A stretch of 64,000 bases of DNA from positions 248,001 to 312,000 of the forward strand of contig NZ_JARXUZ010000001.1 in NCBI RefSeq assembly GCF_029893365.1, read 5' to 3'. This document shows positions 25,683-28,624 of this stretch, piece after piece. A model generated the notes under the pieces. It was not told the origin of the DNA. It saw nothing but the letters and a program-made list of their open reading frames with translations, and searched no databases. The translations under genes were made by a program, and so were the position numbers. Positions within the stretch are counted from its first letter, which is position 1. The number at the start of each line of letters is the position of its first letter. The DNA is from Cryobacterium sp. CG_9.6. Its GTDB lineage: Bacteria; Actinomycetota; Actinomycetes; Actinomycetales; Microbacteriaceae.

Positions 25683-26012
25683 TCACTCCGGCATCACATT
25701 AACCTCAATCTCCACGGATTCGATGGGCTCGTCTTCCCAGGGGCGAACGAGGGTGAGTCTCAATCGCCCTGACCCGTCTGCGACGGCCTGAAATGTGAGG
25801 ATTCGCCCGGCTGCAGCGCCGGGCAAGCCTCCGCGAAAGTGATCGAGTCGGTCGTCGTCGAGCCGTACATTGGTCGGTTCCGCAGCCACCTTCCAGAGGT
25901 ATCCAGCACCCCCGATCTGGTTCAGGCGAATCTCGAGCGTGTCGCCAACCGGAAGGTCGACGACAGCGCCCGAGACCGGGTTATCCAGAATGCGATGGGC
26001 CACACTCACCAC
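25683..26012 (-). CDS. Chagasin-family (I42) cysteine protease inhibitor
   Basis: A 109-residue protein with the three loops that plug papain-type active sites. The first loop is LNQIGGAGYLWKV near residue 31 (chagasin NPTTGYxW). A Gly-rich loop GLPGAAAGRILTF lies near 62, and the RPW loop LVRPWEDE near 88. No signal peptide, so it should be cytoplasmic, unlike most bacterial chagasins. The start is GTG 26012 or, with a GTGA overlap on the upstream stop, GTG 26009. It is the last gene after a papain-family protease, which is its probable target. Confidence 0.85.
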   Translation of the reverse strand: MVSVAHRILDNPVSGAVVDLPVGDTLEIRLNQIGGAGYLWKVAAEPTNVRLDDDRLDHFRGGLPGAAAGRILTFQAVADGSGRLRLTLVRPWEDEPIESVEIEVNVMPE

Positions 26013-26437
26013 ACGTACATCGTGTTGAGCGTGCCCGCCGGGTTCTCATCCACATACGGCGCGGACCCCACGGCTCGGGCGTGTGCCGAGAGCAGCGTGA
26101 GAGCCGTGGATCCGGTGTCGGTGAGGGGGTCCAGTCGCTTCCAACCGGCGGTCTGCAGAAACACCCACGCGTTGCGGTTGCTCTGCTCCGCCCAGAGCGC
26201 GGTGATCAGCTGGCCGCTGATCGCGACACGGGCCGCGTCCCGGGCAAAGAGTGAACCCGGAGGGCTCATATCGGGCTCGGTCGCGGGCGCAGCCTCCACC
26301 TCAATCTCGGCCACGTTCAGTGCGAACAGGTCGGCGAGGTCCTCGGCCGAGAGCTGCCGGGGCATCGTGTCGGTGGGTCGTGGCGCCGCTATGGGGGTGG
26401 AACGGTGGGAATTCGATCGGTCGTTGGTGATCGTCAT
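26006..26437 (-). CDS. Small protein sharing the C-terminal domain of the adjacent papain-like protease
   Basis: A 143-residue protein with a disordered start (Ser, Pro and Arg rich, about 30 residues), a short acidic helix region near LSAEDLADLFALN, and a compact C-terminal domain from about residue 80. That domain (RNAWVFLQTAGWKRLDPLT, ending TMYVW) aligns without large gaps with the end of the protease next door (RNGWIYVQDNGWLRVGGLT, ending QTYTY). ATG 26437 has AAGGAG 7 bases upstream; ATG 26443 is too close. It is 26 bp after the protease and overlaps the inhibitor start. It may be a decoy, regulator or substrate carrier; the function is unknown. Confidence 0.72.
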   Translation of the reverse strand: MTITNDRSNSHRSTPIAAPRPTDTMPRQLSAEDLADLFALNVAEIEVEAAPATEPDMSPPGSLFARDAARVAISGQLITALWAEQSNRNAWVFLQTAGWKRLDPLTDTGSTALTLLSAHARAVGSAPYVDENPAGTLNTMYVW

Positions 26438-26463
26438 GATCATGCTCCTTCGTGGTGTGGCGA

Positions 26464-27579
26464 TCAATAGGTGTAGGTCTGGGTGACGACGCCGTCGTCG
26501 GAGAAGGCGTTGATATACGCGCTCTTCTCCTTGGCCGTGAGGAGGTCCGCGAACATGGCGAGGTGGGACGTTCCAGTGAGACCGCCAACGCGCAGCCAGC
26601 CGTTGTCCTGCACGTAGATCCAGCCATTGCGATCGTGCCCGGTGGCGTAGGCTCCCAGAACCTTCTTGCCCGCCGTCCAGGTGCGCAGGTGCACGCCGGT
26701 GACGCCCACGTTCGACCACGTGTCGATCCAGACCTCGCCGTACTTGATGTAGCCGAAGCCGTTCATGCCCCAGCTGGTTCCCCAGCTGTTCTTCACGATC
26801 CACGCGCCGAGGGTGTCGTCATAGCCGACAATAGCGACGCAGTGTCCGCCCTCCTGTACCCCCGAGACGTGCTGGTACACGCCCGAGTGGTAGCTGAAGA
26901 AGTCGGTGTAAACCACGAAACAGCCGGTGACCGGACCGTAGGTGGTGAGGTGATTTTTCAGCGACTGGATGTTGTTGGTCACGTCGGCTGTGGCCGTCGC
27001 CTTGCCGCGGTGCTGCTCCCAGGTGGAGGGTAAGGATCCGCCGTTGGAGTTACCGGGGGAGTATGCCCACTCCGACTCGTAGGTCACTCCGCGATTGACC
27101 GCGAAGGTCAGCGCGGGGATCGGCATCCACCCGGTGTTGCAGTCAACGCCTACGGTGGAGCCCCAGCCGTAGAACAGGTGCGCTTCCGACAGATCCACGT
27201 CGAGGGTGGGGGTGCCGCGGGTGAAGCGGGCTGTTCCTTCCAGCACCGCAACGGAGCCGAAGGCCACGCACGATCCACAGTTGAGCTGGTTGCGCACCCC
27301 CGAGACGTAGCTCACCCCGCCACGATCGTTCAGGTTGAACTGTGCGGGAAGACCCGCGGCGTCTCGGGCGTCGGCCTTCGCAACCTCTGCTCGAATCTTC
27401 TTGCCGCGCGAATTGAGCTTGTTCTGCTCCTCCTCATCGGGGAGCGGCACGCCGAGCAAGACCGCGCGCTGGCTCTTCGACAGGCGGGTGAGGGCATTTT
27501 CGCTCGCTTCCCAGGGGCTGTCTTCCTTGGTGAGTGCCGCTCTGACGGCATCCACATCAAACTTTTCTGACTCAGCCAT
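26464..27579 (-). CDS. Papain-family (C1) cysteine protease
   Basis: A 371-residue protease. The catalytic Cys lies in QLNCGSCVAFGSV near residue 107, the His in EGGHCVAIVGYDD near 254 and the Asn in VKNSWGTSWGMNGFGYIKYG near 273, all in papain order. About 85 residues precede the core, with a short motif LTRLSKSQRAVLLGVPLP near 31 that resembles a prosegment; about 60 residues follow it as a separate domain. No signal peptide is visible, so the enzyme appears cytoplasmic or exported non-classically. The next two genes encode a protein with the same C-terminal domain and a chagasin inhibitor. Confidence 0.9.
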   Translation of the reverse strand: MAESEKFDVDAVRAALTKEDSPWEASENALTRLSKSQRAVLLGVPLPDEEEQNKLNSRGKKIRAEVAKADARDAAGLPAQFNLNDRGGVSYVSGVRNQLNCGSCVAFGSVAVLEGTARFTRGTPTLDVDLSEAHLFYGWGSTVGVDCNTGWMPIPALTFAVNRGVTYESEWAYSPGNSNGGSLPSTWEQHRGKATATADVTNNIQSLKNHLTTYGPVTGCFVVYTDFFSYHSGVYQHVSGVQEGGHCVAIVGYDDTLGAWIVKNSWGTSWGMNGFGYIKYGEVWIDTWSNVGVTGVHLRTWTAGKKVLGAYATGHDRNGWIYVQDNGWLRVGGLTGTSHLAMFADLLTAKEKSAYINAFSDDGVVTQTYTY

Positions 27580-27688: not shown

Positions 27689-28624
27689 TCAGCTGGTGAG
27701 ATAGTTTTCGAGCTGGGGGGTGCGGAGCATCGCCAGAGCGCGCTTCTCGAGCTGTCGCACCCGCTCGCGCGTGACTCCGTGAGTCGTGGCGAGCTGATCG
27801 AGTGTGCGGGGTTCCTCACCGTCCAGGCCGAAGCGCGCCTCCACGATAGAGCGCTCGCGCGCCGGCAGTGCGGCGAGAGCTCGAATGATGTCGTGCGTCT
27901 GCATGGACTGCACGGCGCACTCGTCGGGTTGCGGCAGATCGTCGTCCACAATCAGTTCAGAGATGACGCCCGAACCGTCACCCACCGGTGTCTGGAGGGA
28001 CAGGGGTTCCAGATCGTAGCGAAGCAGCTTGGTAATTTCGTCGGTGTGGAGATTCGTGGCGATCGCAAGTTCTGCCGGAGCAGGAATGCGGTCAAGGGAG
28101 ACTCGGAGTTCTTGCTGGGCGCGTTTGATGCGGCTGAGTTTTTCTGCCGTGTGCGCGGGGATGCGAATGATGCGCGCCTTGTTGTCGATGCCCCGATGAA
28201 TGGCCTGTCGAATCCACCAGGTTGCATAGGTCGAAAACTTGTAGCCCGAGGTGAAGTCGTATTTCTCCACCGCTCTCACGAGGCCGATATTGCCGTCCTG
28301 AATGATGTCCATGATCGGTGTGCCGTGTCCGGCATAGGGCTTGGCAAGGCTCACGACCAGGCGCAGATTGCACTCAATGAAACGGTCGCGGGCCCGGTGC
28401 CCGTCCTGCACTAGCCAGGCCAAATCCCGCTCCGCGAGTCGATCCTGCGGATACCGAGACAATCGTGCGTCGGCGAAGAGCCCCACCTCGATTCGACGGG
28501 CCAGGTTCACCTCCTCCTCCGCGCTGAGGAGCACGCCGGTGCTGAGTCGCTGCAGGTACGCCCCAAACGCATCCGTTGCGGCGTAGTCGTTGCCCGACCC
28601 GGAGCGGGCCGTGAAGGCGGTCAT
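27689..28624 (-). CDS. RNA polymerase sigma-70 family factor (group 2-like)
   Basis: A 311-residue sigma factor. Region 1.2 (DAFGAYLQRLSTGVLLSAEEE), region 2 with GLVRAVEKYDFTSGYKFSTYATWWIRQAI, read in parts, near residues 115-145, region 3, and the region 4 helix-turn-helix TLDQLATTHGVTRERVRQLEKRAL near 277 are all present. It lacks the long region 1.1 of the housekeeping factor, so it is an alternative stress or stationary-phase type. No ribosome site is visible before ATG 28624, suggesting a leaderless message. A DosR-like palindrome lies 36 bp upstream. The protease cassette follows 109 bp downstream. Confidence 0.92.
   Translation of the reverse strand: MTAFTARSGSGNDYAATDAFGAYLQRLSTGVLLSAEEEVNLARRIEVGLFADARLSRYPQDRLAERDLAWLVQDGHRARDRFIECNLRLVVSLAKPYAGHGTPIMDIIQDGNIGLVRAVEKYDFTSGYKFSTYATWWIRQAIHRGIDNKARIIRIPAHTAEKLSRIKRAQQELRVSLDRIPAPAELAIATNLHTDEITKLLRYDLEPLSLQTPVGDGSGVISELIVDDDLPQPDECAVQSMQTHDIIRALAALPARERSIVEARFGLDGEEPRTLDQLATTHGVTRERVRQLEKRALAMLRTPQLENYLTS

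What the first reader, a model, noticed from the sequence alone, without database searches (positions are those of the whole stretch)
25683..27579. Cytoplasmic papain-like protease operon with its own chagasin inhibitor
Three coupled minus-strand genes encode a C1 cysteine protease (Cys, His and Asn motifs intact), a small protein, and a chagasin-type I42 inhibitor (loops NQIGGAGYLW and RPWE). None has a visible signal peptide. Chagasins are known inhibitors of papain-family enzymes, and in bacteria are usually exported. A protease-inhibitor pair kept in one cytoplasm suggests a regulated or self-limiting proteolysis system, possibly a stress, defence or toxin-immunity device. The function is inference.
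Basis: partly seen in the sequence, partly recalled or inferred. Interest (0 to 1): 0.85.

Follow-up and report, generated by a model that had tools for sequence, protein, structure and literature searches.

The report
Guarded papain-like protease gene cassette
A bacterium, very likely a Cryobacterium, carries a small gene set for a papain-like protein-cutting enzyme, its own chagasin-type inhibitor and an undescribed partner protein that shares a domain with the enzyme; the same trio recurs in distant bacteria, which points to a real but uncharacterised protease-and-guard system.

Summary
On the minus strand lie a C1 protease (26464-27579), a small protein M (26006-26437) and a signal-less chagasin-type I42 inhibitor (25683-26012), with a co-travelling sigma factor upstream (27689-28624). 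The pairing reaches beyond this genome: in 296 genomes of the class, signal-less I42 genes lie beside a C1 gene in 13 of 16 places, exported ones in 0 of 37; the RxW inhibitory loop is kept in 15 of 16 and 0 of 37. New here: M and the protease's C-terminus are homologous OB-like domains (hhalign 98.1%). Protease, M and I42 are adjacent in 8 of 8 complete loci, one on a Deinococcus plasmid. All 127 M-family sequences retrieved carry PxxxPP and end in Trp. The protease model is procathepsin-like, pro-segment included. 'One cytoplasm' is doubtful: this clade keeps two cysteine pairs that other signal-less C1 subfamilies lack. Best reading: an inhibitor-guarded effector protease zymogen with M as docking partner, perhaps a substrate-like second inhibitor. 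Target, trigger and site of action are unknown. New variant of a known kind; interest 0.6.

The parts
26464..27579 (-). C1 papain-family protease, 371 aa: pro-segment-like aa 1-76, catalytic domain about aa 78-295, OB-like C-terminal domain about aa 303-371
   Evidence: Pfam 2.4e-35; model pLDDT 94.8 aligned with procathepsins over residues 1-297
27268..27270 (-). catalytic Cys104 codon (His246 at 26842-26844, Asn264 at 26788-26790)
   Evidence: kept in 115, 116 and 117 of 117
26467..26673 (-). OB-like C-terminal domain of the protease (aa 303-371)
   Evidence: homologous to M: hhalign 98.1%, E 6.3e-13; blastp 3e-7
26006..26437 (-). small protein M, 143 aa (145 aa if started at 26443): N-terminal tail, PxxxPP motif, OB-like domain, terminal Trp
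   Evidence: no Pfam, NCBIfam or PADLOC match; 452 relatives among 7995 scored
26258..26275 (-). PDMSPP motif of M
   Evidence: PxxxPP in 127 of 127 retrieved M-family sequences
25683..26012 (-). chagasin-type inhibitor I42, 109 aa, no signal peptide; L2-like stretch 25902-25922 (NQIGGAG), L6 RPW at 25737-25745
   Evidence: Pfam 1.3e-13; best solved relatives are Amoebiasin-2 (E 0.0019) and an ICP (0.022)
27689..28624 (-). group-2 (SigB/RpoD-like) sigma factor, co-travelling with the trio in this genus
   Evidence: Pfam and NCBIfam; orthologue at 73-75% only in the other two trio holders of 57 genus genomes, at most 66% elsewhere

Best explanation
An inhibitor-guarded protease cassette that works like an effector-immunity pair. 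The C1 enzyme is made in the cytoplasm as a procathepsin-like zymogen (predicted fold only). The I42 protein caps enzyme that matures early, through its RPW loop (inferred from homology and conserved pairing). M docks on the protease through matching OB-like domains and may lay its P-x-[LM]-x-P-P segment in the active site as an uncleavable substrate mimic, hydrophobic residue at P2 and Pro at P1' (inferred). In this genus its own sigma factor probably switches it on (inferred from co-inheritance). The enzyme most likely meets its target only after leaving the producer by a non-Sec route such as lysis or a contractile injection system (inferred, weakest step).
Against: No activity, binding, toxicity or export is shown. 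No export route is demonstrated: the contractile system lies about 675 kb from the cassette, the four genomes that have it are close kin, G318 has it without the trio, and of six other genomes with protease or M only two have a sheath. A signal-less I42 can protect only the cytoplasm, whereas conserved cysteine pairs point outside; the two hints do not fit one simple picture. Protease and I42 distances do not co-vary (rho 0.27, p 0.33). One C1 relative, G064, has no I42 in the 15 kb examined. The window I42 lacks the classical NPTTG and GXGG motifs.
Confidence: 0.45

Rival explanations
1. Intracellular regulated proteolysis: a stress-induced cytoplasmic protease that processes the cell's own proteins, held in check by I42 and tuned by M.
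For: No signal peptides; co-inherited sigma factor; other signal-less C1 subfamilies beside I42 have few cysteines, as expected of cytoplasmic enzymes.
Against: The window's clade keeps both cysteine pairs; the trio is in only 3 of 57 genus genomes and absent from close relative G318; sister C-terminal domains are of peptidoglycan-binding or DUF346 type.
Confidence: 0.25
2. Extracellular or lysis-released scavenging protease, with I42 merely protecting the cytoplasm before release.
For: Conserved cysteine pairs; binding-type domains on sister enzymes.
Against: No Sec signal in any part, although Sec export would be the simple route for a scavenging enzyme.
Confidence: 0.12
3. Anti-phage or programmed-death device in which infection or stress releases the protease from its inhibitor.
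For: Patchy, all-or-nothing presence; two caspase-family genes follow the trio in Deinococcus aetherius.
Against: No PADLOC match for protease, M or I42; the sigma factor matches the MzaA model only over its sigma part and far below the NCBIfam cut-off, 259.5 against 800 bits; the window flanks are ordinary metabolic genes.
Confidence: 0.12
4. Chance neighbourhood of unrelated genes.
For: In four of the eight loci I42 is on the opposite strand.
Against: Recurrence from Cryobacterium to Deinococcus and the 13 of 16 versus 0 of 37 contrast.
Confidence: 0.03

Closest known systems
Chagasin/ICP with cruzipain-type C1 enzymes (MEROPS I42 and C1, protozoa)
   Same: Same inhibitor and enzyme families, RPW loop kept.
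   Different: Bacterial, adjacent genes, no signals, classical NPTTG replaced by NQIGGAG, and an extra OB-like pair of domains.
Procathepsin B-type zymogens
   Different: No secretion signal; extra C-terminal OB-like domain; Cys220 and Cys247 at positions that are Ala in cathepsin B (alignment; their S2-pocket role is recalled).
Cip1, exported chagasin-like inhibitor of Pseudomonas syringae (PMC5014320, passages)
   Same: Bacterial protein with chagasin motifs that inhibits papain-family enzymes.
   Different: Cip1 has a signal peptide and targets plant proteases; the window's I42 is signal-less and sits beside its presumed own enzyme.
Polymorphic-toxin papain-like peptidases with immunity proteins (PMC3482391, passages)
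   Same: Papain-fold enzyme beside a presumed protector gene.
   Different: Different papain clades; 'chagasin' does not occur in the first 300,000 characters held of that text.

Membership tests
Peptidase family C1 (papain) | C1 profile match with catalytic Gln-Cys-His-Asn | tested here: met
   Pfam 2.4e-35; Q98, C104, H246, N264
Peptidase family C1 (papain) | Proteolytic activity | not testable with these tools
   needs an enzyme assay
Inhibitor family I42 (chagasin) | I42 profile match | tested here: met
   51.4 bits, cut-off 27.2
Inhibitor family I42 (chagasin) | Loop L6 RPW/F (as given in PMC2607524) | tested here: met
   RPWE present
Inhibitor family I42 (chagasin) | Loop L2 NPTTG and loop L4 GXGG (as given in PMC2607524) | tested here: inconclusive
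   NQIGGAG and GLPGAAAG stand at these places: divergent, not absent; neighbours in the survey vary too
Inhibitor family I42 (chagasin) | Inhibition of a C1 enzyme | not testable with these tools
   needs a binding or Ki assay
Effector-immunity pair | Effector and protector genes adjacent and conserved together | tested here: met
   8 of 8 trio loci; 13 of 16 signal-less I42
Effector-immunity pair | Delivery route | tested here: inconclusive
   sheath in 3 of 3 genus holders but in 2 of 6 others searched
Effector-immunity pair | Toxicity relieved by the partner | not testable with these tools
   needs expression tests
OB fold of the AB5 B-subunit type (for M and the protease C-terminus) | Fold match | tested here: inconclusive
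Known anti-phage system (PADLOC) | Match to a system-specific model | tested here: not met
   no match for protease, M or I42; sigma factor matches MzaA over its sigma part only

The most novel reading that the evidence does not exclude
An unnamed three-part protease control system: a papain zymogen, a chagasin guard, and a partner family (M) whose OB-like domain pairs with the enzyme's own C-terminal domain while its P-x-[LM]-x-P-P segment sits in the active site as an uncleavable pseudo-substrate; two cysteines at the S2 pocket could act as a redox switch, so that the enzyme wakes only after leaving the reducing cytoplasm.
Probability: 0.2. Interest if true: 0.8.

Novelty: new variant of a known kind. 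Interest (0 to 1): 0.6.

Why it matters
Why bacteria carry chagasin-type inhibitors is, to my knowledge (recalled), largely open. In the class sampled here the survey separates two kinds: exported ones without the RxW loop and without a C1 gene nearby, and signal-less ones that keep the loop and mostly lie beside a C1 gene. That makes the question directly testable, and it points to a partner family (M) with two sharp sequence marks, PxxxPP and a terminal Trp, that can be mutated.

Tried and rejected
Chance or isolated oddity: rejected by the survey. Known defence system: no PADLOC match for the trio. Virus-borne module: M has no tblastn-confirmed relative in viral contigs; the C1 genes of 18 viral loci gave no OB-like-domain hit, and only L024 gave an I42 hit, with a three-sequence I42 profile. 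The genome-contig scan with the protease gave 1 distant locus. Plasmid search with the I42 alone: no match. Promoter: one promoter-like site against 0.5 expected in shuffles, not upstream of the protease; the alignment of the sigma-protease intergenic region of three genomes showed no clear shared promoter to my eye. Contractile-system papers (passages): PMC11297309 holds 'papain' and 'cysteine protease' only in its reference list; PMC8213781 has 0 hits for 'peptidase C1', 'cysteine protease' and 'protease'. PMC7159879 and PMC10318531 have 0 hits for 'chagasin'. No description of a C1-M-I42 unit showed up in the listings of searches; the library is partial.

Limits. The signal-less/exported split is a hydropathy rule (signal-less at most 1.6, exported at least 1.9) and I wrote the list after seeing which loci had a C1 gene. 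L085 was flagged by the lipobox pattern, upstream of its likely start. Two exported I42 (L093, L126) are masked or cut before loop L6. Some flanks end at contig ends. Related genomes are not independent. Of the eight trio loci one is the window, five were found with the protease and two with M. The weaker C1 hits in G254 and G016 were not examined for I42. The shared contig lengths (7 lengths common to 24 M and the first 32 of 120 C1 entries) are only indirect evidence of linkage.

Full report
What is there. Three minus-strand genes encode a C1 protease (26464-27579), a small protein M (26006-26437) and a chagasin-type I42 inhibitor (25683-26012), tightly spaced, with M's stop overlapping the I42 start. 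Pfam gives Peptidase_C1 at 2.4e-35, Inhibitor_I42 at 1.3e-13 and nothing for M. At E 0.001 the genome holds one match to this protease and one I42. Two genomes of the same genus carry the same unit. In a sample of 299 genomes of the family, the protease has a close match only in the window's own genome; three others match weakly.

A fourth gene. The sigma factor at 27689-28624 is SigB/RpoD-like, group 2. In 57 genus genomes the protease occurs in 3. A sigma factor at 73-75% identity occurs only in the two other holders; elsewhere matches reach at most 66%. In the close relative G318 the beta-lactamase-like and xylulokinase-like flanking genes lie about 0.2 kb apart with none of the four genes between them, against about 3.5 kb in the window. 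The four genes are thus present or absent together in what I examined. As G318 is nearer to the window than the other two holders (flank gene identity 89% versus 86%), loss in G318 is the simplest history.

The trio recurs. A Deinococcus aetherius plasmid has the same order; a caspase-family gene, a hypothetical gene and a second caspase-family gene follow. Profile scans of fetched loci show protease, M and I42 adjacent in 8 of 8 loci with a complete downstream side: window, L038, L039, L007, L040, L041, L173, L174. G391 is cut by its contig end. The I42 gene is on the same strand in four and convergent in four. In 297 genomes of the order M occurs in 4, all with the trio. G588 has M and I42 at a contig end with no protease visible. 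G377 has a second C1 protease, with a peptidoglycan-binding domain and no OB-like domain. Of the 8 genomes found with the protease profile in 394 of the class, all 7 that are not truncated have an I42 beside a C1. G064, a more distant C1, has none in the 15 kb examined.

Two kinds of I42. In 296 genomes of the class, 50 hold 53 I42 places. I examined 49 in fetched stretches and the other four in loci already in hand. Sixteen have no N-terminal hydrophobic signal, 37 do. A C1 gene lies in the fetched flanks of 13 of the 16 and of 0 of the 37 (Fisher 6.7e-10; not corrected for kinship, and the split was written with the C1 results in view). The three without are L086, L089 and the contig-end L105. 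The RxW of loop L6, which contributes to binding of some enzymes by chagasin (passages of PMC2607524: a 100-fold effect on cathepsin L, little on cruzipain), is kept in 15 of 16 and 0 of 37 (two of the 37 are cut or masked there; the exception among the 16 is G488). The neighbouring C1 genes belong to several subfamilies, so the pairing is wider than the trio.

M is a relative of the protease's own tail. BLAST gives 3e-7. The protease-tail profile hits M down to 6e-13 within the training set and 6e-11 in L041, which was not in it. hhalign gives 98.1% and E 6.3e-13, against a best of 4.7% in 20 column shuffles. A profile search finds 452 relatives among 7995 scored. All 127 sequences retrieved (24, 103 more from the list) carry PxxxPP and end in Trp; the motif lies 88-97 residues before the end and its third residue is L, M or V in 111 of 127. 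They were found with sequences that themselves bear these marks. None of 117 proteases has PxxxPP. Read as a papain-family substrate the motif puts a hydrophobic residue at P2 and Pro at P1', which would not be cut (recalled enzymology); hence the pseudo-substrate idea. Protease and M distances co-vary (rho 0.82 over 15 pairs with one Cryobacterium kept); protease and I42 distances do not (rho 0.27, p 0.33).

Where it acts. Nothing carries a visible signal. Yet Cys101 and Cys147 are both kept in 114 of 117, and so are Cys220 and Cys247. The first pair stands at the canonical papain disulfide (recalled); the second aligns with two alanines of cathepsin B, S2-pocket residues by recall. The other C1 subfamilies beside signal-less I42 lack these cysteines: L112, L090, L091, L096 and L127 in the alignment; L083, L084, L085 and L088 are aligned there only over their second half, and lack Cys101 by reading. 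L024, L047 and L008 keep the first pair but not the full second. Sister proteases carry peptidoglycan-binding or DUF346 domains. A contractile injection system (sheath, tube, spike and baseplate families, read on the G321 copy) is marked by a sheath gene in 4 of 57 genus genomes, including all 3 trio holders (1.4e-4 if genomes were independent). They are not: the four are close kin, and of six other genomes with protease or M two have a sheath and four do not. Work outside the cell is a reasonable but unproven reading.

Verdict. Best reading: a guarded effector protease with a double lock (pro-segment and I42) and possibly a third (M). Activity, binding, target and export are not shown.

Noticed in passing
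L182/L183 (window's own genome, about C1:948-958 kb); L184 (G321), L187 (G318): A contractile injection system: sheath gene in 4 of 57 genus genomes; tube, CIS_tube, Phage_base_V and Baseplate_J families read on the G321 copy.
   Followed up: partly
L086:7033-7290, L089:7050-7307: Signal-less I42 genes with RxW but no C1 gene in the fetched flanks; in L086 a neighbour ends in a GNVTGTAFQ-like motif that recalls bacterial amyloid signalling motifs (recalled).
   Followed up: no
L007:7904-13041: Two caspase-family genes follow the trio on the Deinococcus aetherius plasmid.
   Followed up: no
L024:979-5713: A viral contig with a 267-aa C1 gene, an I42 and a subtilase gene close together.
   Followed up: no
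L039:3358-5321: The M13 peptidase gene of G328 is split between two frames at about 4542.
   Followed up: no
P0041, P0043, P0067: Three of 117 protease sequences lack the catalytic Cys (S or G) or His (Q), so inactive members may exist.
   Followed up: no
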